DNA of 64,000 bases from an uncultured Burkholderiales bacterium (GTDB taxonomy: Bacteria > Pseudomonadota > Gammaproteobacteria > Burkholderiales > Burkholderiaceae_C): the NCBI GenBank assembly GCA_945952065.1, contig CAMFGY010000008.1, positions 124,001 to 188,000 of the forward strand. The letters run 5' to 3'. The position numbers were made by a program, and so were the translations under genes. A model generated the notes under the pieces. It saw nothing but the letters and a program-made list of their open reading frames with translations, made no database searches and was not told where the DNA came from. This document shows, piece by piece, positions 2,258 through 16,138 of this stretch (the stretch's first letter is position 1; every line of letters begins with the position of its first letter).

Positions 2258-4141
2258 TCAGCTCAGCAGCCAACTGCTGATTCTGAACGTTAGGAACGAC
2301 GCCAAGTAGGCCAGGCCGAACAAATAGCCGGCCATCAACAAGGGCATTTTCAGTCCGCCCGTTTCTCGCTTGACTGCGGCCAAGGTGGCCAGGCATTGAG
2401 GGGCAAACACAAACCAGGCCAAGAGTGAAAAGGCCGTGGGCAGGCTCCAGCTTTGCGCAATCAAGGGCGCCAGGGCCTGGGCCGTGTCCTCTGCGGAGGC
2501 GGACAAAGCGTACACGGTGCCCAAGGCGCTGATGGCAATTTCTCGGGCGGCAAGACCTGGCACCAGGGCCAGGCTGATCTGCCAATTGAAGCCAATCGGC
2601 TCAAACACATGGGCCAAGGCGCGTCCCAACATGCCGGCGAAGCTGTATTCAATCGGCATGCCCGAGGCGCCTGCAGGGGGCGCCGGAAAGCTCGACAAGG
2701 CCCAAAGCAACAGCGTGAGCGTCAAGATGATGCCGCCCACACGCTTCAAGAAGATCTCCGCGCGCTGCCACAGACCGATCAAGATATTGCGCGGATGCGG
2801 CCAGTGGTAGCTGGGCAACTCCATCATCAGCGGCCGGACTTGCTGGGGGCTGGTGAAGCGCTTGAGCACCCAGGCCACCGCCAGCGCACCGACGATGCCT
2901 GCGAGATACTGCCCAAACAGCACCAAGCCTTGCAAGGATAAACCGCCCCAAACCTCACGCTGTGGAATGAAGGCCCCGATCAACAAGGCATAGACCGGCA
3001 AGCGGGCCGAGCAGGTCATCAAGGGCGCAATCATCAAGGTGACCAGACGGTCGCGCGTATTGGCAATGCTGCGCGTGGCCATGATGCCTGGGATGGCGCA
3101 GGCAAAGCTGGAGAGCAGAGGAATGAAGCTGCGGCCCGACAAGCCCACGCTGCCCATCAAACGATCCAGCAAAAACGCAGCGCGCGGCAGATAGCCCGAT
3201 TCCTCCAGTACCAAAATGAAGAAGAACAAAATCAGAATCTGCGGCAGAAACACCAGCACGCCGCCGACGCCGGCAATCAAGCCGTCCACCACCAGGCTGC
3301 GCAGCCAGCCCTCCGGCAAGAGCGGGCCCACTTGCTGGCCCAGCCACGCCATGCTGGATTCGATCAGGTCCTTCGGCGCTTCGGCCCAGCTGAACACCGC
3401 CTGGAACAAGAGGAACAAGATGGCCGTCATGATCAGCGGGCCCATCACGGGGTGCAGCAGCACACGGTCCACACGGTCACTGGGCAGGTGCGGCAACTGG
3501 CGATCCAGACCCAGGCTTTGCAAGATTTGCTTCACCTGGGCGTGATCGGTGTCAGGCTGGTTGTCCAGGTTCAGATCGGGCAGGGCCTGCGAGGCCGGAG
3601 CCCAGACTTCGCGTTGATCGAGCAGCGCCTTGAGGGCGTCAATGCCTTCACCACGGGTGGCCACGGTGCGCACCACGGGCACGCCCAGCGCAGCGGAGAG
3701 TTCCTCGGTGTTGACCTCGATGCCGCGTTTGGCGGCCAGGTCTGCCATGTTCAGAACCACCACGCACGGCAATTGCAAGCGCTTGACGGCCAGGACCAAG
3801 CGCAGCGTGCGGCGCAGATTGGTGGCGTCCAGCACACAGACCACCAAGTCGGGGCGCTTCTCGCCGCGGGCGCGGCCTGCCAGCACATCACAGGTTACTC
3901 GCTCGTCGGGGGAGCGAGGGTGCAGGCTGTACGTGCCCGGCAGGTCCAGCAAGCGCAAAGCACGCCCGGACGCACTGTGCAAACGCCCTTCTTTGCGCTC
4001 CACCGTCACACCGGCATAGTTGGCCACCTTTTGGTGACTGCCGGTCAGCCGATTGAAGAGGGCGGTCTTGCCACAGTTCGGGTTGCCCACCAAGGCCAGC
4101 AAGGGGCCGCTGGGGTGCACATGGATGACTGCTTCACGCAT
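2258..4141 (-). CDS. feoB: Ferrous iron transporter FeoB
   Basis: Inner-membrane Fe(II) permease of 627 residues. The N-terminal G domain shows G1 GNPNCGKT (19-26), G3 DLPG and the NMAD form of G4. The helical GDI-like region follows, then the polytopic membrane part with two Gate-like repeats (for example PRAAFLLDRLMGSVGLSGRSF). It is shorter than the about 770-residue E. coli protein and lacks its cysteine-rich C-terminal tail, as is common outside enterobacteria. The ATG at 4141 is chosen over an upstream ATG at 4264 because it begins right before the G domain and overlaps the end of feoA by 8 bp, giving translational coupling. No feoC is present. Regulation is probably by Fur through the box upstream of feoA. 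Confidence 0.96.
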   Translation of the reverse strand: MREAVIHVHPSGPLLALVGNPNCGKTALFNRLTGSHQKVANYAGVTVERKEGRLHSASGRALRLLDLPGTYSLHPRSPDERVTCDVLAGRARGEKRPDLVVCVLDATNLRRTLRLVLAVKRLQLPCVVVLNMADLAAKRGIEVNTEELSAALGVPVVRTVATRGEGIDALKALLDQREVWAPASQALPDLNLDNQPDTDHAQVKQILQSLGLDRQLPHLPSDRVDRVLLHPVMGPLIMTAILFLLFQAVFSWAEAPKDLIESSMAWLGQQVGPLLPEGWLRSLVVDGLIAGVGGVLVFLPQILILFFFILVLEESGYLPRAAFLLDRLMGSVGLSGRSFIPLLSSFACAIPGIMATRSIANTRDRLVTLMIAPLMTCSARLPVYALLIGAFIPQREVWGGLSLQGLVLFGQYLAGIVGALAVAWVLKRFTSPQQVRPLMMELPSYHWPHPRNILIGLWQRAEIFLKRVGGIILTLTLLLWALSSFPAPPAGASGMPIEYSFAGMLGRALAHVFEPIGFNWQISLALVPGLAAREIAISALGTVYALSASAEDTAQALAPLIAQSWSLPTAFSLLAWFVFAPQCLATLAAVKRETGGLKMPLLMAGYLFGLAYLASFLTFRISSWLLS

Positions 4142-4415
4142 GCAGCGTCTCCTGGCTGTCCATGCGCTGCACTGCGACACACTCGGCTTCGGCACGCCGG
4201 AGCGCGAATGTCGATTGACCGATCCGTATGACCAGCGGGTCGGCGCCGGGTTGGCCGCGTGCAATCACCCGCACGGATTCGCCCGGCAGAAAGCCGATTT
4301 CCTCCAGCCAGCCGGACCATTCCGGCGCATGCACGGGGGCTTGGATGCTGTGGACTTGCAGCGCTTCGCCGATACAGGCTTGGGCCAAATTGGCCAGTGG
4401 GACGACGGTCTTCAT
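4134..4415 (-). CDS. feoA: FeoA, small SH3-like accessory protein of Fe(II) transport
   Basis: A 93-residue cytoplasmic protein with the typical FeoA pattern: an N-terminal PLANLA stretch, the central glycine turn ending GESVRVIARG, and a C-terminal segment giving IRIGQSTFALRRAEAECV. FeoA is thought to act on the FeoB G domain and is needed for Fe(II) uptake. It overlaps feoB by 8 bp, so the two are one operon. A Fur-type palindrome lies about 60 bp upstream of the start. Confidence 0.93.
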   Translation of the reverse strand: MKTVVPLANLAQACIGEALQVHSIQAPVHAPEWSGWLEEIGFLPGESVRVIARGQPGADPLVIRIGQSTFALRRAEAECVAVQRMDSQETLHA

Positions 4416-4474: not shown

Positions 4475-4489
4475 CGAGAATGATTCTCA
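4475..4489 (-). promoter_or_regulatory. Fur box upstream of feoAB
   Basis: CGAGAATGATTCTCA matches the 7-1-7 Fur consensus TGATAATGATTATCA at 12 of 15 positions, and its core GAGAATgATTCTC (4476-4488) is a perfect 6-1-6 palindrome. It lies 60-74 bp before the feoA start, where a repressor would block the promoter when Fe(II) is plentiful. Confidence 0.85.
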
Positions 4490-4530: not shown

Positions 4531-5232
4531 TCAGTCCGGAGTGAACAGTTGCTGATGCAAGTGCTGGCGGATCTCTCCCAGGTATTCGCTCACCAAACTG
4601 CTGCTGCAGGCTTCGGATTTGCCGCGATGCAGCAGTTGCTGTGCGCGCCACAGCCCCAAGGTGCCGCAATGGGCTTGCAAGCCTTCCATTTTTTGGCGCA
4701 CCGCAGGGCTCGGTGGTGCGCTGGGTGCGGCCTCATCGGCCAAAGCGGCCAGCATCTGGCCAATCTGGTTTTGCATGCCTTGCAGATAGGCGCGGTAACG
4801 GTCGGGCGCGAGTTTGAGTCGGGCCATGGTGAGCGCGGGGCGCTCCATGGTTTTGCTGGCGGCCAGTTGCAACAACTTGCTGAGTCGGTTTCGGGCGTCT
4901 TGCTGCTGGAAGGGTTTGACCAAATAGCCGCTCACGCCCAGTTGCACCGCTTCTTGAATGGCGGCCGCATCATTCACCATGGAGACGAGGACGAAAGGCA
5001 TATCCTTGCAGCCCGGATGGGCGCGTACCTTTTGCAGCAGCTCCAGCCCTGACATCCCGGGCATTCGGATGTCGCAGCAGACCAGCATGGGCGGGACGGC
5101 GTGTCCGCTGATTGCCTGCCAAGCCTGCTCCGCGTTGTCGGCCTCGCTGATGCGGTAGTTGCCACATTCGGCGATCGCGTCAATCAGCGCCAAGCGCGTG
5201 ACCTTCTCATCATCCACCACCAAGACCTTCAA
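4531..5232 (-). CDS. Response regulator: REC domain followed by an Hpt-like helical domain
   Basis: A 233-residue cytoplasmic signalling protein. The receiver domain (1-120) has the acidic pair (VVDDE), the phosphoacceptor Asp54 in CCDIRMPGMSG and the conserved Lys106. No DNA-binding or enzymatic output is visible. Residues about 130-233 are helical and contain LQAHCGTLG with His188, resembling the histidine of an Hpt fold but lacking the usual LKG after it. The start is a TTG at 5232, placed by a good GGAGG Shine-Dalgarno 7 nt upstream and a TTGA overlap with the stop of the kinase gene. It therefore is co-expressed with the upstream hybrid kinase and is its likely partner. Confidence 0.85.
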   Translation of the reverse strand: MKVLVVDDEKVTRLALIDAIAECGNYRISEADNAEQAWQAISGHAVPPMLVCCDIRMPGMSGLELLQKVRAHPGCKDMPFVLVSMVNDAAAIQEAVQLGVSGYLVKPFQQQDARNRLSKLLQLAASKTMERPALTMARLKLAPDRYRAYLQGMQNQIGQMLAALADEAAPSAPPSPAVRQKMEGLQAHCGTLGLWRAQQLLHRGKSEACSSSLVSEYLGEIRQHLHQQLFTPD

Positions 5233-7685
5233 GGCTGAACCTCCGTATTGGCCTGGATATCGAGACTGCTTTGCAACTCGCGCTTGAGCAGAGCAAAGCT
5301 TTCGATGAACTCGTCTTCGTCTTCGTTGTCCGCCATGCGTTCCAACCAATCGCTCAAGTCGTAGGCCTGCCCTTGCGGCTCGATAAAGGCCAGGCAGCCC
5401 TTGATCCCATGGGCCAGAATGGCCGCAGCCGGCCAGTCTTTGTTGGCAATGGCGGCCTCAATTTCGCGGTAGCGCAAAGGCGCTTGGGCCCGGAAGGCCA
5501 GCAGCATTTGTTCGCGCAGTTCAACAACTCTTTGGGCACGGGCGGGTGAGCTTGCAGGCTTGGCAGGCTCCGCTGCCCCGGATGTGACCGCGCCTGCCGC
5601 CTCAGGCGGCGGGGTGTCCAGCAAGGCGTCCAAGCCTGCCAAGTCGGCCGCGAGTTCGGACGCAGAGCTCGCCCTGGGCTTGAGCATCAAACCTTGGGCC
5701 TTGCGCTGTTCGATGACGCGATTGAGGGCTTGATGCAGTGCGGCTTCGTCGACGGGCTTGCGCAGAAAGTCGCTCATGCCTACCGCGAGAAACTTGGAGC
5801 GGTCCATCTCGGACGCATTGGCCGTGAGCGCAATGATGGGGATGTCGCGCTCGGCGAACACCCAGTCGCGCCAAAAACCGGCGCGAATGTGCTGGGTGGC
5901 TTCCAACCCGTCCATGACCGGCATGCGCCCGTCCATCAAGATCAGGTCGAAGCTCTCCTGTGTCAGCGCTTCCAAGGCCTTTTCGCCGTTGTTGACCAGG
6001 GTGAAGGTGTGGCCCATTTCGCTGAGCACGGCTTTGATGATCAACTGATTGGTTTCTGCATCTTCAGCAATCAGCACATGCAACTGGTGCTCATGCGGCA
6101 GCAAGACTTCAAGCGCAGCTTCGGCGGGCTGTTGACCCGGCAGCAAGGGCAGGTCGAAATAAAAGGTACTGCCGCCGCCCAACTTGCTGCGCATGCCGAT
6201 GTGGCCGCCCATCAATTCGACCAGTTGCTTGCAGATCGACAAACCCAGACCGGTGCCGCCGAAGTTGCGGGTGGTGGACATATCGGCCTGTTCGAATTTC
6301 TGGAACATGCGGCCTTGGGCTTCTTCGCTGATGCCAATGCCGGAATCCTGCACGGCAAAGTGCACCCACAGGGCTTCGTCGCCACCGTCGTTCCCGGGCC
6401 CGTGGTCCGTGTGATGATCGGGCGGGGGCTGCAAGCGCACATTCACACTCACGCCGCCTTGCTCGGTGAATTTGATGGCATTGCCGACGAGATTGAGCAG
6501 CACTTGGCGCAAGCGCGTGGGGTCGCCTTTCAGGAAGGCGGGCAGTCTGGGGTCCATATGCAGGGCAAAGCCGATGCTTTTTTGCTCGGCCCGTTCTTGC
6601 AGCAGTTGCATGGCCTCGTCCAGCAGCGGTTGCAGGGCGAAGTCCACGCTTTCCAGGCTCAGCTTGCCGGCTTCGATCTTGGAGCCATCGAGCAAATCGT
6701 TGACGATTTGCAGCAATGTGTTGGCGTTCTTGCAGGCCAACTCGACGCGCTCACGGACCGTGGCTTCCATCTGCCCGCGCAGGCTCAACTTGAGCATGCC
6801 CAAGATGCCCGCCATCGGGGTGCGCAACTCATGGCTCATCATGGCCAGGAAGGCGCTCTTGGTTGTGGAGGCTTGTTCTGCGGCCTCTTTCAGCGCCAGC
6901 AAATGGCGGTTGTTGTCTTCCAAAAGGCCGTCGCGTTTGACGATTTGGTCCAGCATGTGGTTGAACACCAAGCTGAGGTCGCCCACTTCATCATTGGCGA
7001 CCAGGGCCGCCCGGACAGTGAAGCGCTCTTGCTGGGCCACCTCGTCCATCACTTGTTTGAGTCCAGCAAGCGGTTGCAAAGCACGATGCAAAAAACGCCG
7101 AGCGGCCAGGGCCGCAACAATGCCGGAGAGGCCCAGGGCCAACAACAGCGAAAGGCCAAAGCGCAGCACCGAACGCCACATCGGCGTCAAGTCGATCTTG
7201 GCCACAACCCGGCCCACTTGCTCATGCGAGAGCAGGACTGGGGTGCTGATGAGCAAGGAGCGATCGAAATATGCGGAACTGGGCAGCAGCTTGAGCGCCT
7301 CTGGCGACAGGGGGGCTTGGGCTTCGCCCAGATGGTGGGCCATGGTGGAACCATCGGAGCGCAAGATATACGCCGCCTGCAGGCCCGGATAAATGCTGGT
7401 TGCACGCAGAATTTCGCTGGCCGCCTTGGCGTCATCAAACACCAGCGGAGACGCCGACTGCACCGCCAAGGTGTTAAGCCAGGCTTGACTGCCTTCACTG
7501 ACCGCCGCACGTTGGCTCAGCACTTCTTGACTGCTGATCCATACCCAAGCAATCAACAAGGCCGAGCCCATGGCTGCAGCAAGAATGCGCTCCAGTCGGC
7601 TGACCAAGGACAGGCGCGGAAGCTGGCTGACTTGTGAGCCAGTGTCGTCAAAGGGCGGGCCGCTGGGGGCAGGTCGGTTGCTCAC
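5229..7685 (-). CDS. Hybrid sensor histidine kinase with CHASE8-like sensor, HAMP, kinase core, REC and Hpt
   Basis: 818 residues. TM1 (about 35-52) and TM2 (about 174-196) bracket a periplasmic region of the CHASE8 type (ASPLVFDDAKAASEIL, YILRSDGSTMAHH). HAMP follows (about 197-250), then HisKA with His285 in SHELRTP, an HATPase with intact N and G boxes (NLVGNAIKFTE, GTGLGLSI), a receiver domain (LILMDGRMPVMDG) and a C-terminal Hpt (AHGIKGCLAF). The protein can therefore run an internal phosphorelay. CHASE8 is the sensor of YfiN-type diguanylate cyclases, and a YfiR-like gene sits immediately upstream, so the sensor is probably controlled by that periplasmic protein. The start is GTG at 7685 with no obvious ribosome site, 37 bp after the yfiR-like stop. 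Confidence 0.92.
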   Translation of the reverse strand: MSNRPAPSGPPFDDTGSQVSQLPRLSLVSRLERILAAAMGSALLIAWVWISSQEVLSQRAAVSEGSQAWLNTLAVQSASPLVFDDAKAASEILRATSIYPGLQAAYILRSDGSTMAHHLGEAQAPLSPEALKLLPSSAYFDRSLLISTPVLLSHEQVGRVVAKIDLTPMWRSVLRFGLSLLLALGLSGIVAALAARRFLHRALQPLAGLKQVMDEVAQQERFTVRAALVANDEVGDLSLVFNHMLDQIVKRDGLLEDNNRHLLALKEAAEQASTTKSAFLAMMSHELRTPMAGILGMLKLSLRGQMEATVRERVELACKNANTLLQIVNDLLDGSKIEAGKLSLESVDFALQPLLDEAMQLLQERAEQKSIGFALHMDPRLPAFLKGDPTRLRQVLLNLVGNAIKFTEQGGVSVNVRLQPPPDHHTDHGPGNDGGDEALWVHFAVQDSGIGISEEAQGRMFQKFEQADMSTTRNFGGTGLGLSICKQLVELMGGHIGMRSKLGGGSTFYFDLPLLPGQQPAEAALEVLLPHEHQLHVLIAEDAETNQLIIKAVLSEMGHTFTLVNNGEKALEALTQESFDLILMDGRMPVMDGLEATQHIRAGFWRDWVFAERDIPIIALTANASEMDRSKFLAVGMSDFLRKPVDEAALHQALNRVIEQRKAQGLMLKPRASSASELAADLAGLDALLDTPPPEAAGAVTSGAAEPAKPASSPARAQRVVELREQMLLAFRAQAPLRYREIEAAIANKDWPAAAILAHGIKGCLAFIEPQGQAYDLSDWLERMADNEDEDEFIESFALLKRELQSSLDIQANTEVQP

Positions 7686-7722
7686 GGCTGCAGATCGCTG
7701 GGTGTCAGGAACAAAGAGGGCC

Positions 7723-8271
7723 TCAGTTGGTGCTGCGAGCCAGTTGCAAAACCTTGGAAGACAAATTCAAACCTTGCTTCTTGACGCGCTGAACGTTGAC
7801 GTCAAACACCAAGCGGTTGCCGTCCACGCTGAGCATTATTGCGGCATTGGCCGCCAACGGGGAGTCCGCCACGGTCAGCACCGGCGCGTCGCCAATCGCG
7901 CCTTGAATCGATTGCATATTCGGCGCTTCCCGCTCGGTCACGAAGAGCAAGTGGCACTTCTTGACGCCGGGCAAATGGTTCACCCGCTGAACGCTCAAGC
8001 GTCGACCGTTGACGTTCTTGCCTTCCAGGTTGGTCAGCGCCGCGCCAAAGCTGTCTTGTCCGAAAACGCAAAGATTGAGGCCCTCACGCGGTGTGTTGGG
8101 CGCGTTGGACTCGGTGTTGGGCCATTCGGTGAACACCATGAAGTTGTACAAATAGGTGGCCTTCATCACATACTCTGGCACAGGGGGCGCCGTGGCTTGA
8201 GCGTGGGACGACGTGGACAAGCCACATCCCAGGCTCAGCAAAACGGCGATCAAGAGACCGGGCATCTTCAT
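7723..8271 (-). CDS. YfiR-like periplasmic protein (DUF4154)
   Basis: 182 residues with a Sec signal peptide (about 1-26) and the YfiR/DUF4154 hallmark EYVMKATYLYNFMVFTEWP near the mature N terminus. Two cysteines remain (68 and 106), fewer than in Pseudomonas YfiR. In Pseudomonas YfiR is a periplasmic inhibitor that binds the sensor of the CHASE8 cyclase YfiN. Here the downstream partner is a histidine kinase. The ATG at 8271 is preceded by GGAG 6 nt upstream and starts 2 nt after the TonB-receptor stop, so the genes are translationally close. Function in the same pathway as its neighbours is inferred from operon structure. Confidence 0.88.
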   Translation of the reverse strand: MKMPGLLIAVLLSLGCGLSTSSHAQATAPPVPEYVMKATYLYNFMVFTEWPNTESNAPNTPREGLNLCVFGQDSFGAALTNLEGKNVNGRRLSVQRVNHLPGVKKCHLLFVTEREAPNMQSIQGAIGDAPVLTVADSPLAANAAIMLSVDGNRLVFDVNVQRVKKQGLNLSSKVLQLARSTN

Positions 8272-8273
8272 GC

Positions 8274-10391
8274 CTATCTCCAGAAGTCCAGGCTGAGTTG
8301 CAGCCAAAAGCTGCGGCCATCCATCTCCAGGGTGTCGAGCAATGCACCCTTGTCCGAGTAGCGCGGATCGGCGGCGGGCACCTCGTAACGCCGATTCAAG
8401 GCGTTTTTGATGCTGAAGGCTGCGCCGATGCCATACCAGGTCCGTGCGGAGGTCAGGGTCAGGTTCAACAGGCTCACGCCTGCGACCGGGCGCCCTTCAC
8501 GGACCAAGATGCGGTTGTCATCGCGCAGCTCTTGGGTATTGCGCGCGCCGATGTATTGCGCCTCCAAGCCAAGCCGGGCGGCGCTTTCCAGTACCGGCCA
8601 ACTCATATTGAATTTGGCCAGTGCTCGCGGGGAGTTCATCAAGCGTTTGCCCTCAACATCGAGGGCGGACTGCAGGGCGGCACTGGCGCGAACTTTGACC
8701 TCGTCGCTCCATTTGTGATCCAGCTGAAGCTCCAGGCCGCGCGTCTTGCTTTGGCCGTCGAAAACGCGCTCGCCCGTGCTTGAGGAGCGATAGCTTTGAT
8801 CCGAGAGCCGGTAGTCGTACACCGAACCGGTCAAGCGCAAGGTCGGCGTCAAGTCATATAGCAGCACCAGTTCAGCGGCGCTGACCTGCTCGGGCTTGTA
8901 CAGGGTGGACGGAATCGGCGAATTGGCCTCGTAAGGGTTGGGCAGTCGGAAGGCCTGGCTGTACGAGGCTTTCAACGTGGTCTGGGCGTCAGGGGCGAAG
9001 ACCAAGGCCAAGCGCGGACTGACGGCTGCTTTCTTGGCATAGCTGAAGCAGGGCGGGGCGGTGCAGTCGAGCGCGTCGGGCTTGTCGTAACGCACGCCGA
9101 TATTGGCGGTGATCCACTCACTGAGCAGGAACTCGTCGGTGGCGTAAAGGCTGTACGTCTTGTTGCTGAACGGTGATTTGAAGTATTCGAACTGCTCCTG
9201 GTGCTGTCCGTCCAGGGCAACGGCGCGCACTTCTTGTTGAAAGTCATTTCGAAACTCAAAGCCGAAAATCAAGGTGTGATCCTTGATGCCGGTGTAGGCG
9301 AACTTTTGGTCCAGGCCCCACCATTTGCCGTGGGTCTTGTTTTGACGGAAGAACTCTTTCGGGTCAGGGGCGCCGTATTCCCGCAGGGTCAGGTCTTCGT
9401 AATGACCGTAATAGAGTCGAGACACCGACTTCAAGCCACTGAAGACATTGAAGTCGTATTGAGCGCTGGCATGCGTCGAGGCGTCGTTCAATTCATACGC
9501 ACGATTGAAGGCGTTTTCTCGCTTGGGGATGGGCGAAGCCTTGGTCCGCGAGGCCTTGGCGACCTGAAGGCTTAGGTTTTCATAGTCAAGCTTGGCGAAA
9601 AAACGCTGGCTGTGCTCAAAGTCCTGGCCACTCACCCAACCATTGTTTTGCCCAATCTGGTCAAAGTAGGGGAAGTAAAGGGTTTGACCTTCGCTGCGCT
9701 GGCGCGAGGCAGAGACCAAGAAATTGCTGCCGTTGTCCAGGCGCTTGCCCACCGTCACGCGTTGCTTTTGACCGCCGAAACTGGCGGCCTCGGTGGCAAT
9801 TTGCGCTGCGTTGAAGTCGCTGCCTTTTTTGGTGATGACGTTGATGATGCCCAGCAAGGCATTGTTGCCATAGGTGACTGAGCCGGTGCCGGGCACATAC
9901 TCCACACGTTCGATCAGTTCCAGATCGAGCAGGCCAGAGTTGTCGATATAGGCTTGGTTGTAAATATTGTCTTGGACGGAGTTGCCATCCACCAACATCA
10001 TGATGCGGCCGATGTAGTCCCCGGGCGCGCCAAATCCGCGACCGCCCAAATACTCGTAGCGGCGGTCATAGGTGGTGTAGAGGCCGCGCATGCCATTGAT
10101 GACATCGGCCAAAGTCCGGTAGCCAAAAGCGCGGATATCGTCTGCAGTGACGATGGCCACCGCCGAAGGGGAGTCGCTGACTTGCTTGGCAAGTTTGGAG
10201 GCGGTGATGACCGTGGTTTGGGTCAACTTTTCAAAGGGGATGGAGGTCAGGTCCCGGCTGCTGTCTTGCGCCGAGGCCAAGCCAGAGCCCAGCCAGACCG
10301 AACAGGCCAGCACTGAGGGCAAGCGCGGCCACAGCAGGCTCCAGGCGCCTTTTGAGGCCAGTGTGCGGCGGGATTTGAATGCCATCGTCAT
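8274..10391 (-). CDS. TonB-dependent outer-membrane receptor
   Basis: 705 residues: signal peptide (about 1-42), then PFEKLTQTTVITASK leading into the plug (SPSAVAIVTADDIRAFGYRTLADVIN), and a 22-strand-type barrel ending LSLDFWR. No N-terminal signalling (STN/secretin) domain is visible, so it is not a FecA-type transducer on its own. The ligand is unknown. This receptor class is often found beside yfiR-like and CHASE8 kinase genes, and here it is the first gene of that operon, suggesting that it supplies an outer-membrane input or takes up a substrate whose entry is sensed. A 13-bp palindrome lies 4 bp upstream of the ATG. A second in-frame ATG at 10385 is possible. Confidence 0.93.
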   Translation of the reverse strand: MTMAFKSRRTLASKGAWSLLWPRLPSVLACSVWLGSGLASAQDSSRDLTSIPFEKLTQTTVITASKLAKQVSDSPSAVAIVTADDIRAFGYRTLADVINGMRGLYTTYDRRYEYLGGRGFGAPGDYIGRIMMLVDGNSVQDNIYNQAYIDNSGLLDLELIERVEYVPGTGSVTYGNNALLGIINVITKKGSDFNAAQIATEAASFGGQKQRVTVGKRLDNGSNFLVSASRQRSEGQTLYFPYFDQIGQNNGWVSGQDFEHSQRFFAKLDYENLSLQVAKASRTKASPIPKRENAFNRAYELNDASTHASAQYDFNVFSGLKSVSRLYYGHYEDLTLREYGAPDPKEFFRQNKTHGKWWGLDQKFAYTGIKDHTLIFGFEFRNDFQQEVRAVALDGQHQEQFEYFKSPFSNKTYSLYATDEFLLSEWITANIGVRYDKPDALDCTAPPCFSYAKKAAVSPRLALVFAPDAQTTLKASYSQAFRLPNPYEANSPIPSTLYKPEQVSAAELVLLYDLTPTLRLTGSVYDYRLSDQSYRSSSTGERVFDGQSKTRGLELQLDHKWSDEVKVRASAALQSALDVEGKRLMNSPRALAKFNMSWPVLESAARLGLEAQYIGARNTQELRDDNRILVREGRPVAGVSLLNLTLTSARTWYGIGAAFSIKNALNRRYEVPAADPRYSDKGALLDTLEMDGRSFWLQLSLDFWR

Positions 10392-10859: not shown

Positions 10860-10928
10860 GCTGGATCGCCGCCGGGCGGGGCCCCAGGTCTCGTTCGCCC
10901 TTCTTCTTTGCTGCCACCTCCTATCGCC

Positions 10929-11957
10929 ATGACGATTGCCATCTCGCCGTTTGCTCGCGCCGCTGCTTTGAAGCGTGGGTCGCCCTGGGTCACTGCACCG
11001 CTGGCGCTTGCCCTGCTGGTTTTGTCGGCGAGTGCGAGCGCACAAAGCAAGCCAGCGGTCATCTTCGATATGGGGGGCAAGTTCGACAAGTCCTTCAATG
11101 AGTCGGCCTACCGCGGTGTGGAGCGCTGGAAGCAAGAAAGCGGCAAGCCTTATCTCGAATTCGAAATCAGCAACGACACGCAGCGGGTGCAAGCCATCCG
11201 CCGCATGGCCGAACGTGGCGCCAGCCCTATCATCAGCGTGGGCTTTGCACAGGCTTCGGCGCTGGAGCAAGTGGCCAAGGAATTCCCAAAGACACAGTTC
11301 GCCATCGTGGACGCCGAGGTCAAGCTGCCGAATGTGCAGTCGCTCTTGTTCAAGGAACATGAAGGCAGCTATCTGGTCGGCGCCATGGCGGTGTTGGTCA
11401 GCAAGACCGGCAAGGTCGGTTTTGTCGGTGGCATGGATATTCCTTTGATCCGCAAATTCCAATGCGGTTACGAACAAGGGGCCAAAGCCACCAACCCCAA
11501 GGTGGAGGTTTTCTCCAATATGACCGGCACCACGTCCTCGGCTTGGAACGACCCCACCCGAGGGGGGGAGTTGGCCAAGGCGCAGTTCGCCAAGGGTTCG
11601 GATGTTGTGTTTGCCGCGGCGGGCGGCACCGGCTCGGGTGTTTATCAAGCCGCCAAGGACGCAGGGCGCTTGGCCATCGGGGTGGACAGCAATCAAAACC
11701 ATCTGCAACCGGGCACCATGTTGACCTCTATGGTTAAGAACGTGGATGTGGCGGTCTACAACGTCTTGAAGGGCTGGAAAGCAGGCACCACGGTGCTGGG
11801 CCTAAAGGAAGGCGGCGTGGAATACGCGCTGGATCAACACAATGCCAAGCTGATCAACCCAGCGGTGAAGAGCAAGGTTGAAGCCATCAAGGCCGACATC
11901 ATCTCGGGCAAGGTCAAGGTCGCCGACTACATGGCTGACGGTGCTTGCAAGTACTGA
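10929..11957 (+). CDS. BMP family nucleoside ABC transporter substrate-binding protein
   Basis: 342 residues with a signal peptide (cleavage near SASASAQS, about residue 39) and the BMP/PnrA/Med fold: KPAVIFDMGGKFDKSFNE at the mature start, VGFVGGMDIPLIRKFQCGYEQG, and GTGSGVYQAAKD. BMP proteins bind purine and other nucleosides for ABC import. It is the first gene of a run with the matching ATPase, two permeases and four nucleoside catabolic enzymes, so nucleoside binding is strongly supported by context. The ATG at 10929 is preferred over a TTG at 10908; neither has a clear Shine-Dalgarno. It lacks a lipobox cysteine, so it is probably soluble in the periplasm rather than lipid-anchored. Confidence 0.92.
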   Translation: MTIAISPFARAAALKRGSPWVTAPLALALLVLSASASAQSKPAVIFDMGGKFDKSFNESAYRGVERWKQESGKPYLEFEISNDTQRVQAIRRMAERGASPIISVGFAQASALEQVAKEFPKTQFAIVDAEVKLPNVQSLLFKEHEGSYLVGAMAVLVSKTGKVGFVGGMDIPLIRKFQCGYEQGAKATNPKVEVFSNMTGTTSSAWNDPTRGGELAKAQFAKGSDVVFAAAGGTGSGVYQAAKDAGRLAIGVDSNQNHLQPGTMLTSMVKNVDVAVYNVLKGWKAGTTVLGLKEGGVEYALDQHNAKLINPAVKSKVEAIKADIISGKVKVADYMADGACKY

Positions 11958-11988
11958 ACACCTCCCGACAAGAACTTTCCCATTCATC

Positions 11989-13590
11989 ATGAAGCAAGTT
12001 GTGCAGGGCGCTGGGCCTGATGCGGTGCCCGGCTCGGGGCGGCCTGCCGTGCGGCTGTGTGCCATCTCCAAGCGTTTTGGCGCGGTGCAGGCCAACCGAG
12101 AGGTCTCACTGAATGTGGCTGCGGCCAGTGTGCACGGCTTGGTGGGCGAAAACGGTGCCGGCAAGAGCACCTTGATGGCCATTTTGTATGGCTATTACCA
12201 AGCGGATGCTGGTCATATTGAAATCGACGGCCAGCGCGTGGAGATCAACAATTCCCAGCAGGCCATTGCCCTGGGTTTGGGCATGGTGCATCAGCACTTC
12301 ATGCTGGTGGACACGTTGAGTTGTTTGGACAATGTGATGTTGGGCGCGGAGCCCGCCTTTTTCTTGAACGCCGCCAAGCGCAGCGTCAGGGCCAAGTTGG
12401 AGGCCCTGATGCAAGACACCGGCCTGCAGGTGCGGCTGGATGCTTTGGTGGGTGACTTGCCGGTGGGCGAGTTGCAAAGGCTGGAAATCCTCAAGGCGCT
12501 CTACCGTGGCGCCAAGATCTTGATTCTGGATGAGCCCACCGCGGTGTTGACACCGCAAGAAACCCAGCAATTGTTCGAGACCCTGCGTCGCTTGAAGGCG
12601 CGCGGCACTACCATCATTTTGATCACCCACAAGCTCAAAGAAGTGATGGCTTTGTGCGATGAGGTCACCGTGATGCGGGCGGGTCAGGTGGTGCAAACGC
12701 GTGCCATTGCGGACACCAGCCCGGAGGATTTGGCAGAGGCCATGGTGGGCCGCAAGGTCAATCTTGGGCGGCGTGCCGGTGCCAAGGCCGAGCAGGCCGA
12801 GGTGCGCTTGAAGGCCGAGCACTTGAGCCTGCGTGCCGCCAATGGGGTGCCTTTGTTGAGCGACCTGAGCCTGAATTTGCATGCGGGCGAAATCGTCGGT
12901 GTGGCCGGTGTTTCGGGCAATGGGCAAAGCGAGTTGCTGGAGATTTTGTCCGGCATGCTGGCGCCGGATGCCGGACGCATGCAGCTGGGCGAGGCGCTGT
13001 TTGAGGCCGCCGCCGGCGCTTGGTTGAATCCGCGGCAGGCGCGGGCCTTGAAGCTCGCCCATGTGCCGGAAGACCGCCATCTGTGCGCCATGGTGATGAA
13101 TTTTCCGGCTTGGGAAACCGCCGTGCTGGGCTACCAAGACCAGGCCCAATATCGCAGCGGGCTTGGCGGCCTGAGCATGAACCAAGCTTGGATGCGCGAG
13201 CAAACTGCGCAGATGCAAGAGCGCTTTGATGTGCGGCCGCGCAATGTGGCGCTGGGCTCCTCCAAGTTCTCGGGCGGCAATCAACAAAAGCTGGTGATGG
13301 CGCGCGAGATCGGGCAGGCGCCTCAGGTGCTGCTGGTCGGGCAGCCGACGCGCGGTGTGGACATTGGCGCCATTGAATTCATCCACAACCAACTGCGCGC
13401 CATGCGTGACGCCGGTTGCGCAGTGCTTGTGGTCAGCAGCGAATTGGATGAAATCTTGGCCTTGGCCGATCGGGTCATCGTGATGAACGCAGGCCGGATC
13501 ACGGGTGAATTGGCAATTGAAGCCTGTGACGAAAAAACCTTGGGAATGATGATGGCAGCGCAAGTCGCCGCGACGGGAGAGCACGCATGA
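11989..13590 (+). CDS. Nucleoside ABC transporter ATP-binding protein, two fused ATPase domains
   Basis: 533 residues. The first nucleotide-binding domain has Walker A GENGAGKST (about residue 50) and Walker B LILDEPTA. The second has the degenerate P-loop GVSGNGQSE, a FSGGNQQK signature and Walker B-like LLVGQPTRG. This asymmetric, sugar-importer-like (carbohydrate uptake transporter 2) arrangement is typical of BMP-type nucleoside importers, where only one site is fully catalytic. The start at 11989 follows the binding-protein stop by 31 bp. Its end overlaps the first permease by 4 bp (ATGA). Confidence 0.94.
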   Translation: MKQVVQGAGPDAVPGSGRPAVRLCAISKRFGAVQANREVSLNVAAASVHGLVGENGAGKSTLMAILYGYYQADAGHIEIDGQRVEINNSQQAIALGLGMVHQHFMLVDTLSCLDNVMLGAEPAFFLNAAKRSVRAKLEALMQDTGLQVRLDALVGDLPVGELQRLEILKALYRGAKILILDEPTAVLTPQETQQLFETLRRLKARGTTIILITHKLKEVMALCDEVTVMRAGQVVQTRAIADTSPEDLAEAMVGRKVNLGRRAGAKAEQAEVRLKAEHLSLRAANGVPLLSDLSLNLHAGEIVGVAGVSGNGQSELLEILSGMLAPDAGRMQLGEALFEAAAGAWLNPRQARALKLAHVPEDRHLCAMVMNFPAWETAVLGYQDQAQYRSGLGGLSMNQAWMREQTAQMQERFDVRPRNVALGSSKFSGGNQQKLVMAREIGQAPQVLLVGQPTRGVDIGAIEFIHNQLRAMRDAGCAVLVVSSELDEILALADRVIVMNAGRITGELAIEACDEKTLGMMMAAQVAATGEHA

Positions 13591-14717
13591 GCAGCAGCGG
13601 CCAAGCCATTGTGTTGCCGCGCTGGATAGACGTGGGCCTGTTGCCACTTTGGAATCTTTTGGTGGCCCTGGCCGTGGCAGGCGGGGTGGTCTTGGCGATT
13701 GGGCAAAGTCCGGCTCAGGCCTTGAGCGTTTTGTTGGAAGGGGCGCTGGGCAGTTCGCGCGGTCTGGGCTACACCCTCTACTACGCCACTACCTTTATTT
13801 TTACCGGCTTGGCGGTGGCGGTGGCCTATCACGGCGGTCTGTTCAATATTGGGGGTGAGGGCCAGGCCACCTTGGGCGGCATCGGCTTGGGCCTGTTGGC
13901 GCTGGCTTTGGGGCCGCGTTTACCAGCGGCTGTGTTGTTGCCGCTGCTGGTGGTGGCGGCGGCCGTGTTCGGTATGGCTTGGGCCTTGGTGCCCGCTGCA
14001 TTGCAGGCTTGGCGAGGCAGCCATGTGGTCATCACTACCATCATGTTCAATTTTCTGGCAGCCAGCTTGAATGTCTATTTGCTGGTCAACTGGCTGCGCC
14101 CCAAGGGTTCGATGTCGGTGGAAAGCCCGGGCTTTGCGGACTCGGCGCGCATGCCCGGCCTGCATGAGATGGCTGCGCATTTCGGTGTGGAACTGCCGTC
14201 CTCGCCGCTCAATCTCAGTCTTGTGCTGGCTCTGCTGGCGGCTGCCTTTGTCTATTGGTTCTTGTGGAAAAGCCGGGCGGGCTATGCCTTGCGCGCCGTG
14301 GGCAGTGCGCCTCGGGCCGCGCATTACGCGGGCATCAAGCCGCGCATGCAGGTGCTGGTGGCCATGGGCTTGTCGGGTGCTTTGGCCGGGCTGGTGGCGG
14401 TGAACGAAATCTCAGGGGTGCAAGGCAAGCTGACCCTGGACTTTGTGGCGGGCGCTGGTTTTACCGGCATTGCGGTGGCTTTGATGGGCCGCAACCATCC
14501 GGTGGGCATCATCTTGGCGTCTTTGCTGTTTGGCGTGCTTTACCAAGGTGGGGTTGAGGTGTCGTTTGAGCTGCCCGGCTTCAGCCGGGAAATGGTGGTC
14601 ACGGCCCAAGGCCTGATCGTGCTTTTTGCGGGGGCCATGGCCAGCGTCAGCGCGCCGGTGTTTGCCCGCCTTTATGCGATGGTTGCGGCCCAGAAGAAGG
14701 AGGCCCGTCATGGATGA
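13587..14717 (+). CDS. Nucleoside ABC transporter permease, first subunit
   Basis: 376 residues, polytopic inner-membrane protein of the BPD_transp_2 family. Motifs include GLFNIGGEGQATLGG and SHVVITTIMFNFLA, followed by YALRAVGSAPRAAHYAGI, the conserved cytoplasmic loop that contacts the ATPase. It overlaps the ATPase gene by 4 bp and the second permease by 8 bp. It works as a heterodimer with that permease to import nucleosides. Confidence 0.93.
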   Translation: MSSSGQAIVLPRWIDVGLLPLWNLLVALAVAGGVVLAIGQSPAQALSVLLEGALGSSRGLGYTLYYATTFIFTGLAVAVAYHGGLFNIGGEGQATLGGIGLGLLALALGPRLPAAVLLPLLVVAAAVFGMAWALVPAALQAWRGSHVVITTIMFNFLAASLNVYLLVNWLRPKGSMSVESPGFADSARMPGLHEMAAHFGVELPSSPLNLSLVLALLAAAFVYWFLWKSRAGYALRAVGSAPRAAHYAGIKPRMQVLVAMGLSGALAGLVAVNEISGVQGKLTLDFVAGAGFTGIAVALMGRNHPVGIILASLLFGVLYQGGVEVSFELPGFSREMVVTAQGLIVLFAGAMASVSAPVFARLYAMVAAQKKEARHG

Positions 14718-15690
14718 AGTCTTGATCGGCTCCGTGCTGGCTTCGACCTTGCGCGTCAGCACACCCTTGCTGCTGTGTGCGCTGGCCGGTTTGGTCAGCG
14801 AGCGCTCGGGCGTGGTGGATATCGGCCTGGAAGGCAAGATGCTGTTTGCCGCGTTTGCTGCAGCCGCCACGGCCAGTGTGGCTCACTCGACCGGTCTGGG
14901 CGTTTTGGCAGCCGTGGGCGTGGCGTGCTTGATGTCCTTGATTCATGGCTATGCCTGTGTCAGCCACCGGGGGGACCAAGTGGTGTCGGGCGTCGCCCTG
15001 AACATGGTGGCTGCCGGCTTGACTGTGGTCTTGGGCATTGCCTGGTTTGCTCAGGGGGGCCAAACCCCGCCGGTGGCTGCCGATGTGCGCTTGAGCGGTT
15101 TGATCCCGGCCTGGAGTGAGTTGGATGCTGCGGTGGCGGCCTGGGGGCCCTGGCTGGGCGCGGTCGTTGCGCATGGTTTGCTCAGTCACAACCTCTTGGT
15201 CTATCTGGCCTTCGCGCTGGTGGCTGGGGTTTGGTTTTTTCTGGAGCGCACCAAGCCCGGGCTGCGTTTGCGCGCCGTGGGCGAGAACCCGGCCATGGTG
15301 GATGCGGCCGGCCTGTCCGTGCCGCGTCTGCGTTATGCCGCCTTGATGATCAATGGCTGTTTGTGCGGGCTGGCGGGCAGCTATTTGGTGTTGGCGCAAA
15401 ACGCGTCCTTTTCGCCCAATATGACGGCTGGCCGCGGCTATATCGCGCTGGCAGCCATGATTTTTGGCAAATGGAAGCCGCTGCCCACGATGTTGGCCTG
15501 TCTTTTGTTCGGTTTTTTGGATGCCGTGGCGATTCGTATGCAAGGCGCGGTCTTGCCGGGCATTGGTGAAGTGCCGGTGCAGTTGATTCAGGCCTTGCCC
15601 TATTTGCTCACCGTCATCTTGCTTGCCGGCTTTATCGGCCAAGCCTTGGCCCCCAAGGCCTTGGGGCGCCCTTACGTCAAAGAACGTTGA
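14710..15690 (+). CDS. Nucleoside ABC transporter permease, second subunit
   Basis: 326 residues with eight or more hydrophobic segments and the paired-permease motifs ERSGVVDIGLEGKML and GLRLRAVGENPAMVDAAGL. The ATG at 14710 has an AAGGAGG ribosome site 7 nt upstream, inside the end of the preceding gene. The next gene (cytidine deaminase) follows after 28 bp. Together with its partner it forms the membrane channel of the nucleoside importer. Confidence 0.94.
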   Translation: MDEVLIGSVLASTLRVSTPLLLCALAGLVSERSGVVDIGLEGKMLFAAFAAAATASVAHSTGLGVLAAVGVACLMSLIHGYACVSHRGDQVVSGVALNMVAAGLTVVLGIAWFAQGGQTPPVAADVRLSGLIPAWSELDAAVAAWGPWLGAVVAHGLLSHNLLVYLAFALVAGVWFFLERTKPGLRLRAVGENPAMVDAAGLSVPRLRYAALMINGCLCGLAGSYLVLAQNASFSPNMTAGRGYIALAAMIFGKWKPLPTMLACLLFGFLDAVAIRMQGAVLPGIGEVPVQLIQALPYLLTVILLAGFIGQALAPKALGRPYVKER

Positions 15691-15718
15691 AGACAAGCAA
15701 AACAGGCAGAGATTGCGC

Positions 15719-16138
15719 ATGAGCCTTCATCCCGACATGCTGCAGCAATTGCTGCAAGCCTCGCTTGGCGCGCGGCAGCACTCCCATTCGCCCTATTCGG
15801 GCTATGCCGTGGGTGCTGCGATTCTGGACGAACAGGGGCGCATCCATGTGGGTGCGAATATCGAAAACGCCGCCTATCCTCAAGGCTTGTGTGCCGAAGC
15901 CACGGCGCTTGGCGCCATGGTGATGGCTGGCGGGCGCCGTGCGCAGGCGGTGCTGGTGATTGGCCCTGGCCCAGAAATCATCACTCCCTGCGGAGCTTGT
16001 CGGCAAAAACTGCGCGAATTTGCCGGACAAGAGCTTGTCATCATTGCCGGCGATCCTTCCGGGATTCGCCAACAGTGGACCCTGGGCGAGTTGCTGCCTT
16101 TCAGTTTTGGCCCCGAGCATCTGAGTCACAAGCCTTGA
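15719..16138 (+). CDS. cdd: Cytidine deaminase
   Basis: 139 residues, the size of the tetrameric zinc cytidine deaminases. The catalytic motif CAEATA (first zinc Cys and the general-base Glu) and PCGACRQ (two further zinc Cys) are intact, and NIENAAYPQGLCAEA is the usual substrate-binding stretch. The enzyme converts cytidine and deoxycytidine to uridine and deoxyuridine in the cytoplasm. It lies inside the nucleoside uptake operon, so it probably acts on imported nucleosides. The ATG at 15719 has a weak AGGCAGAG ribosome site. Confidence 0.94.
   Translation: MSLHPDMLQQLLQASLGARQHSHSPYSGYAVGAAILDEQGRIHVGANIENAAYPQGLCAEATALGAMVMAGGRRAQAVLVIGPGPEIITPCGACRQKLREFAGQELVIIAGDPSGIRQQWTLGELLPFSFGPEHLSHKP

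What the first reader, a model, noticed from the sequence alone, without database searches (positions are those of the whole stretch)
4531..10391. YfiR-CHASE8 sensory pair joined to a histidine kinase and a TonB-dependent receptor
Seen: four closely spaced or overlapping minus-strand genes encode a TonB receptor without an STN signalling domain, a YfiR/DUF4154 periplasmic protein, a CHASE8-HAMP hybrid kinase with REC and Hpt, and a REC protein. Known: in Pseudomonas, YfiR inhibits the CHASE8 domain of the diguanylate cyclase YfiN, with YfiB as the outer-membrane input. Inference: here the same periplasmic switch appears to drive a phosphorelay, with a TonB receptor replacing YfiB. That would be an outer-membrane-to-cytoplasm signalling route distinct from both Yfi and FecAR. 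The ligand and output are unknown.
Basis: partly seen in the sequence, partly recalled or inferred. Interest (0 to 1): 0.72.

Follow-up and report, generated by a model that had tools for sequence, protein, structure and literature searches.

The report
TonB receptor wired to periplasmic kinase switch
Four neighbouring bacterial genes look like a signalling wire from the cell surface to the interior: an outer-membrane uptake receptor, a small periplasmic protein and a membrane kinase with its partner; similar sets occur in many bacteria, and a short end piece of the receptor seems to mark which periplasmic protein it works with.

Summary
In detail: a minus-strand cassette encodes an STN-less TonB-dependent receptor (TBDR), a YfiR/DUF4154 protein, a CHASE8-HAMP hybrid kinase (REC, borderline Hpt) and a REC protein. 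Malone 2012 already reported YfiR with kinases and without YfiB; the outer-membrane partner is what is new. Of 97 DUF4154 genes found in 299 genomes, 62 have a TBDR within 3.5 kb, 15 an OmpA protein, none both, 20 neither. OmpA-linked YfiRs form one supported branch of the tree. The second YfiR Cys pair is complete in 12 of 14 OmpA-linked and 0 of 62 TBDR-linked proteins. YfiR-linked TBDRs carry an N-terminal motif before the TonB box (58 of 62; 0 of 30 controls); 46 of 49 genomes with such a TBDR hold DUF4154. TBDRs beside another adaptor, ABC_sub_bind, lack it (17 of 18), and 14 of them, all from one family, show a different motif. The window's genome holds three TBDR-YfiR cassettes plus one YfiBNR set. 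Best reading: the TBDR tail docks the adaptor and so controls the CHASE8 kinase. Contact, ligand, sign and final output are not shown. New variant of a known kind.

The parts
8274..10391 (-). TonB-dependent receptor (705 aa), Plug + beta-barrel, no STN domain
   Evidence: Pfam PF07715 and PF00593; AlphaFold2 model mean pLDDT 78.4
10194..10253 (-). TBDR residues 47-66: conserved N-terminal motif (roughly L-x-x-[hydrophobic]-[S/P]-[hydrophobic]-[E/D]-x-L) followed by the TonB-box-like stretch (label recalled); candidate docking site for YfiR
   Evidence: Alignments; scan; position checked; pLDDT under 50 over residues 1-58
7723..8271 (-). YfiR/DUF4154 protein (182 aa from the ATG 2 bp after the TBDR stop); signal peptide judged by eye
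   Evidence: PF13689 128 bits; phmmer to P. aeruginosa YfiR structures, E 1.8e-6
5229..7685 (-). Hybrid histidine kinase (818 aa): CHASE8, HAMP, HisKA, HATPase_c, REC, Hpt (borderline)
   Evidence: Pfam
7203..7475 (-). CHASE8 periplasmic sensor domain (aa 71-161); Phe83 corresponds to the Phe of the AAVVF motif predicted to bind YfiR in YfiN
   Evidence: PF17152; Phe in 80 of 80 and 72 of 72 CHASE8 hits; model mean pLDDT 88.4; fold matches
4531..5232 (-). REC protein (233 aa) with an unassigned C-terminal part; likely last phosphate acceptor
   Evidence: PF00072 81.7 bits; no Pfam match in the last 111 aa; the slot holds REC-PAS-GGDEF-EAL in L329 and a REC-GGDEF protein in L330

Best explanation
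The cassette is an outer-membrane-to-cytoplasm signalling system. A TBDR senses or takes up a ligand (unknown). Its N-terminal tail, in the periplasm just before the TonB box, is proposed to dock YfiR. YfiR is proposed to bind the CHASE8 domain of the kinase around the conserved AAxxF site and set its activity, as YfiR does for YfiN. Ligand binding or TonB action on the tail would change how much YfiR is held at the outer membrane and so switch the kinase. Phosphate would run His (HisKA), Asp (REC), His (Hpt), Asp (REC protein). In relatives the last slot or the next gene is a GGDEF or GGDEF-EAL protein, so the output may reach c-di-GMP. Shown here: gene content, co-conservation, mutual exclusion of TBDR and OmpA, adaptor-related TBDR tails, a conserved contact residue. 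Inferred: every physical contact, the sign of regulation, and the output.
For: TBDR within 600 bp of 49, and within 3.5 kb of 62, of 97 DUF4154 genes; OmpA near 15, both 0 (L134 dropped as a duplicate). TBDR on the YfiR strand in 60 of 62; plug genes about 22 times denser within 4.5 kb of YfiR than further out in the fetched stretches (64 v 2). TBDR linkage in 18, OmpA linkage in 5, of the 24 family codes holding DUF4154. In 80 further loci from named genomes: TBDR gene within 3.5 kb in 63, OmpA in 0. By output: kinase 45 TBDR/1 OmpA, GGDEF 9/14, Fisher 6.7e-8. Tail model from seven TBDRs of records titled outside the phylum: 58 of 62 YfiR-linked, 0 of 30 controls, 1 of 18 ABC_sub_bind-linked. 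Genome level: 46 of 49 genomes with a tail-bearing TBDR hold DUF4154 (base 70 of 299), Fisher 1.3e-32. Second Cys pair complete in 0 of 62 TBDR-linked, 12 of 14 OmpA-linked YfiRs. Co-divergence: within-genome shuffles reach the observed value in 17 of 2000 (YfiR-TBDR) and 52 of 2000 (YfiR-CHASE8). Phe conserved in 80 of 80 and 72 of 72 CHASE8 hits. DUF4154 fused to kinases in 5 of 97.
Against: No contact was predicted or measured; only single chains could be modelled. 20 of 97 DUF4154 genes have neither partner in reach (some lie at contig ends). 4 of 62 YfiR-linked TBDRs match the tail model only from position 12 on or later (L061, L100, L129, L132). 24 of the 70 DUF4154 genomes have no tail-bearing TBDR by the strict count, and three genomes have one but no DUF4154 (G063, G153, G220). 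A looser count, from a model not held out and a cut listing, gives 48 of 55. Two tail-bearing TBDRs in DUF4154 genomes are not near it (L221, L231). The tail model's seven rows were cut out with an HMM trained on the phylum set, so it is not wholly independent. Genomes are related, so Fisher values overstate independence. Co-divergence can come from joint inheritance. The Phe is equally conserved in GGDEF-type partners, so it speaks for YfiR binding in general, not for kinases in particular. The tail could serve TonB or sorting rather than YfiR.
Confidence: 0.7

Rival explanations
1. Uptake cassette whose kinase senses the imported ligand: the TBDR imports a nutrient, YfiR binds it in the periplasm and reports to the kinase; the TBDR itself does not touch YfiR.
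For: YfiR's fold is described as similar to the N-terminal domain of an S. pneumoniae ABC-transporter protein and a V. cholerae protein (PMC4655355, passages); ABC_sub_bind proteins take its place in parallel cassettes. A ligand caught after import would give the same gene order.
Against: It does not predict that TBDR tails differ with the adaptor, nor exclusion with YfiB, which binds YfiR directly (PMC4655355). No inner-membrane transporter lies inside the cassette, though feoB lies downstream behind its own promoter-like site.
Confidence: 0.2
2. Redox or envelope-stress sensor: the Cys pair of YfiR is the real input, and the TBDR is only a regulated target of the kinase.
For: 40 of 62 TBDR-linked YfiRs keep the first Cys pair and the other 22 lack both residues; in P. 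aeruginosa YfiR this pair forms or breaks with redox state (PMC4655355).
Against: 22 of 62 have no such pair. A mere target would not need to stay beside YfiR in 18 family codes nor have a tail that goes with the adaptor.
Confidence: 0.1

Closest known systems
YfiBNR of Pseudomonas aeruginosa (and HmsCDE of Yersinia, seen only in the listing)
   Same: YfiR/DUF4154 protein, CHASE8-HAMP inner-membrane receptor, conserved AAxxF Phe, periplasmic adaptor between two membranes
   Different: Input is a TBDR instead of OmpA-like YfiB; output is a phosphorelay instead of a GGDEF domain; second YfiR Cys pair absent
YfiB-less Yfi systems with kinase or Hpt output (Malone et al. 2012, PMC3375315, passages)
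   Same: YfiR next to a CHASE8-type receptor with kinase output
   Different: The held main text has 0 occurrences of TonB; the TBDR, its tail and the branch of OmpA-linked YfiRs are described here
FecA-FecR-FecI type TonB signalling (recalled)
   Same: A TonB receptor signals inward through a partner
   Different: No STN domain; no anti-sigma or sigma factor among the neighbours scanned; kinase or diguanylate cyclase instead
NCBIfam TOL_0243 YfiR-like protein and TOL_0244 TonB receptor (NF053591, NF053590)
   Same: Consecutive names suggest that curators saw a YfiR-TBDR gene pair (inference)
   Different: Window proteins score below both cut-offs: 105.6 v 125 and 86.1 v 645
WalK-YycH
   Same: Top fold match of the sensor model is an integrative WalK-YycH model; control of WalK by an accessory protein is recalled
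   Different: No outer membrane, unrelated adaptor (recalled)

Membership tests
YfiBNR system | YfiR/DUF4154 periplasmic protein | tested here: met
   PF13689 128 bits; YfiR structures E 1.8e-6
YfiBNR system | CHASE8 receptor with the Phe of the AAVVF YfiR-contact motif | tested here: met
   PF17152 39 bits; Phe83
YfiBNR system | GGDEF output on the CHASE8 protein | tested here: not met
   Histidine kinase instead
YfiBNR system | OmpA-like lipoprotein YfiB in the operon | tested here: not met
   No OmpA match in L012, which holds the cassette; TBDR instead
YfiBNR system | Second YfiR Cys pair (Cys145-Cys152) | tested here: not met
   Absent in the window protein (alignment) and not complete in any of 62 TBDR-linked proteins
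YfiBNR system | YfiR binds and inhibits the CHASE8 receptor | not testable with these tools
   No complex prediction or assay available
FecA-type TonB signalling | STN domain on the receptor | tested here: not met
   Only Plug and barrel matched
FecA-type TonB signalling | Anti-sigma FecR and ECF sigma genes alongside | tested here: inconclusive
   Neighbours scanned match FeoA, FeoB, Bmp, cytidine deaminase and patatin/cNMP-binding, one has no match; FecR and sigma families were not searched for by themselves
Multistep phosphorelay | HisKA, HATPase, REC, Hpt and a second REC | tested here: met
   Hpt borderline. Phosphotransfer itself untested
NCBIfam TOL_0243 / TOL_0244 | Score over curated cut-off | tested here: not met

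The most novel reading that the evidence does not exclude
There is a large, unrecognised class of signalling TonB receptors that need neither STN domain nor sigma factor: a short N-terminal tail before the TonB box docks a matching periplasmic adaptor (YfiR for one tail type, ABC_sub_bind for another), which controls an inner-membrane kinase or diguanylate cyclase. YfiBNR would be an offshoot in which an OmpA lipoprotein took the receptor's place.
Probability: 0.5. Interest if true: 0.85.

Novelty: new variant of a known kind. Interest (0 to 1): 0.72.

Why it matters
It proposes what feeds the many Yfi systems that lack YfiB, which were noted in 2012 without an outer-membrane partner, and names a 20-residue segment on which the idea can be tested. 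If true, TonB receptors gain a second general way of signalling, and uptake would be tied directly to phosphorelay and c-di-GMP control in many environmental bacteria.

Tried and rejected
Iron control of the cassette: the 19-base Fur consensus (recalled) gave no match in the window at 3 mismatches. A 15-base form gave two matches where 0.63 are expected by chance (11 of 100 shuffles reach two): one at 4475-4489 before feoA, none before the TBDR. So iron is not supported as the signal of the cassette, and even the feoA site is weak by count. Promoter scan: one site found, 1.8 expected. Ligand from the nearest solved receptors: only the plug region matches colicin I, B12, enterobactin and haem receptors, so no ligand is inferred. 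A siderophore synthetase next door: a single-module NRPS lies left of the window with no link shown. Output of the REC protein: no Pfam match in its C-terminus. A 27-row YfiR alignment (A1) was too diverse for the contig search; a 6-row one (A2) worked. Complex modelling was not possible because the tool takes one chain. Literature: ten searches of the open PMC library were counted. In the listings shown (one search showed 30 of 37 papers) I saw no title or abstract opening on a TBDR-YfiR-kinase system. Passages were read in PMC3375315, PMC4655355 and PMC8846402; everything else was seen only as listings. Subscription papers and preprints are not covered.

Rows chosen or dropped: L134 (duplicate) before all counts; one short row before the tree (96 of 97); 3 of 62 cassettes before the co-divergence test; 49 of 60 candidate sensor rows and 28 of 37 candidate TBDR rows were handed to structure prediction, picked by hand; the Phe count was therefore repeated on all CHASE8 hits.

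Full report
WHAT IS THERE. Four minus-strand genes form one tight cassette: a TBDR (8274-10391; Plug and barrel, no STN match), a YfiR/DUF4154 protein (7723-8271 from the likely ATG, 2 bp behind the TBDR stop), a hybrid kinase (5229-7685; CHASE8, HAMP, HisKA, HATPase, REC, borderline Hpt) and a REC protein (4531-5232) whose start overlaps the kinase stop. Downstream lies feoAB; upstream, divergently, a Bmp-type ABC transporter.

OWN GENOME. The genome holds four DUF4154 and four CHASE8 genes. They pair one to one: on C8 the window cassette; on C21 TBDR, YfiR, CHASE8 kinase; on C10 CHASE8-GGDEF, TBDR, YfiR; on C22 a YfiR-YfiN-YfiB set with an OmpA protein. So one bacterium keeps both input types and both output types. 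It has 40 plug matches in 5.27 Mb.

SURVEY. In 299 genomes of the phylum, 70 hold DUF4154, 97 genes in all. After dropping one duplicate (L134), 49 of 97 have a TBDR within 600 bp, 62 within 3.5 kb, 15 an OmpA protein within 2.5 kb, none both, 20 neither. By output: kinase, fused kinases included, 45 TBDR, 1 OmpA, 14 neither; GGDEF 9, 14, 4; unassigned 8 TBDR, 2 neither. TBDR linkage occurs in 18 of 24 family codes with DUF4154, OmpA linkage in 5. A scan of named genomes with a YfiR alignment gave 134 relatives, of which the best 80 loci were kept; it is biased by its single search peptide. Of these 80, 63 have a TBDR gene and 0 an OmpA gene in reach. Loci with a TBDR in reach include records titled Acidobacteria, Nitrospirae, Geobacteraceae, Magnetococcales, Methylomonas and Verrucomicrobia.

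TREE. A maximum-likelihood tree of 96 of the 97 DUF4154 domains (one short row dropped) needs a single change between TBDR- and OmpA-linked states, rows with neither left out, and at least seven between kinase and GGDEF output. All 14 OmpA-GGDEF-linked rows fall in one branch of 16 rows (support 100/99) that holds no TBDR-linked row. The tree is unrooted, has 143 columns, its bootstrap had not settled, and many inner forks are open, so which partner is older is not shown. The second Cys pair, which P. aeruginosa YfiR needs for folding and stability (PMC4655355), is complete in 12 of 14 OmpA-linked proteins (the other two have one of the two residues in the alignment) and in 0 of 62 TBDR-linked ones. 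The first pair is either complete (40) or wholly absent (22) in the latter.

THE TAIL. YfiR-linked TBDRs share a segment near the mature N-terminus, before the TonB-box-like stretch. A model made from seven TBDRs of records titled outside the phylum (A4; the segments were cut out with an HMM trained on the phylum set) starts its match within the tail (position 9 or less) in 58 of 62 YfiR-linked TBDRs, 0 of 30 TBDRs from ten genomes without DUF4154, and 1 of 18 TBDRs next to ABC_sub_bind. The 30 controls are the loci returned, chosen there by score and genome, not a random draw. Among the 30 TBDR loci returned for seven genomes with DUF4154, two by eye carry the tail although no DUF4154 is near (L221, L231). 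In whole genomes the A4 model finds tail-bearing TBDRs (E 1e-30 or better) in 49 of 299; 46 of these hold DUF4154 and 24 DUF4154 genomes have none (counted by hand from the rows). Exceptions: G063 has an orphan TBDR, G153 one at a contig start, G220 one beside ABC_sub_bind. The first, not held-out, model with a cut listing gave 48 of 55.

A PARALLEL SYSTEM. Following the exceptions led to cassettes of TBDR, ABC_sub_bind (PF04392) and kinase or GGDEF protein. Eighteen TBDRs lie within 3.5 kb of an ABC_sub_bind gene on the same strand in 23 loci picked for it. Fourteen of them, all from one family code (f36), show by eye another shared tail (a Leu/Phe-Phe followed by acidic residues) before the TonB box; of the other four, one has the YfiR-type tail and three fit neither. 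Six f36 genomes (G017, G025, G048, G076, G112, G123) hold both a YfiR-linked and an ABC_sub_bind-linked TBDR, with different tails; in two of the six the ABC_sub_bind gene is directly adjacent, in four it is 3.4 kb away. Within these genomes the tail goes with the adaptor rather than the species. It is the strongest hint that the tail is an adaptor-docking site, but it rests on one family.

STRUCTURE. The kinase sensor is predicted as a PAS/Cache-like domain (mean pLDDT 88.4). Phe83, the counterpart of the YfiN Phe predicted to meet YfiR (PMC3375315), lies between the first two helices and is conserved in 50 of 50 aligned sensors and in 80 of 80 and 72 of 72 CHASE8 hits of the two surveys, GGDEF types included. 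Fold matches with E under 0.001 are a WalK-YycH model, two chemoreceptor models and the LapD-type sensor CdgS9. In the TBDR model residues 1-58 are under pLDDT 50, so the tail is not placed on the plug; low confidence does not prove disorder.

CO-DIVERGENCE. Over 59 of the 62 TBDR-linked cassettes, YfiR and plug distances correlate at 0.55; shuffling partners only within the nine multi-copy genomes reaches this in 17 of 2000 trials. For YfiR and CHASE8 (51 cassettes, seven multi-copy genomes) r is 0.85, reached in 52 of 2000. This fits fixed partnership but also joint inheritance.

OUTPUT AND DISTRIBUTION. The window YfiR type is sparse: 5 of 200 family genomes at E 1e-25, the own one included, and neither of the two other genomes of the genus that are listed. 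In L329 and L330 the REC protein is replaced by a REC-GGDEF protein, with an EAL domain confirmed in L329, and in L328 a PAS-GGDEF-EAL gene follows it; in L327 the next gene is a kinase. c-di-GMP is therefore a likely destination, but in the window nothing nearby shows it.

VERDICT. Its kinase output was in print as an in-silico remark; the TBDR input, the single branch of OmpA-linked YfiRs and the adaptor-related receptor tails were not seen in the listings of ten searches of the open library. The mechanism is inferred throughout. On checking, odds were lowered slightly (0.72 to 0.70 and 0.55 to 0.50) because the second tail type rests on one family.

Noticed in passing
L333-L348, L307, L308, L310: Parallel cassettes TBDR + ABC_sub_bind (PF04392) + kinase or GGDEF protein; 14 of 18 of their TBDRs, all of one family, show another N-terminal motif.
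   Followed up: partly
L109, L120, L126, L127, L128: DUF4154 fused to histidine kinases, with no CHASE8 match in the fusion.
   Followed up: no
L305 9513-11510; L312 8165-10234; L313 8253-10289; L318 4972-7113: TBDRs with the YfiR-type tail but no DUF4154 match in the fetched stretch; L305 is in a genome without any DUF4154 match.
   Followed up: partly
window 2258-4415; site 4475-4489: feoA and feoB directly downstream of the cassette, with a Fur-box-like palindrome in front (1 mismatch to a recalled pattern; two such matches in the window, 0.63 expected).
   Followed up: partly
G000:C8:119685-123800 (L331 15685-19800), just left of the window: Single-module NRPS (condensation, AMP-binding, carrier, thioesterase) next to a patatin/cNMP-binding gene that reaches into the window at 1-1563.
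   Followed up: no
window 10908-16138: Bmp/PnrA-type substrate-binding gene, further transporter-like genes and a cytidine deaminase, divergent from the cassette: perhaps nucleoside uptake.
   Followed up: no
L320 8011-10341; L321 3214-5112: CHASE8 kinase and CHASE8-GGDEF proteins without a DUF4154 match in the fetched stretch.
   Followed up: no
L311 2882-3448: A weak DUF4154-like protein between a TBDR and a kinase in G085, which one search does not list; the family is probably wider than the Pfam model.
   Followed up: no
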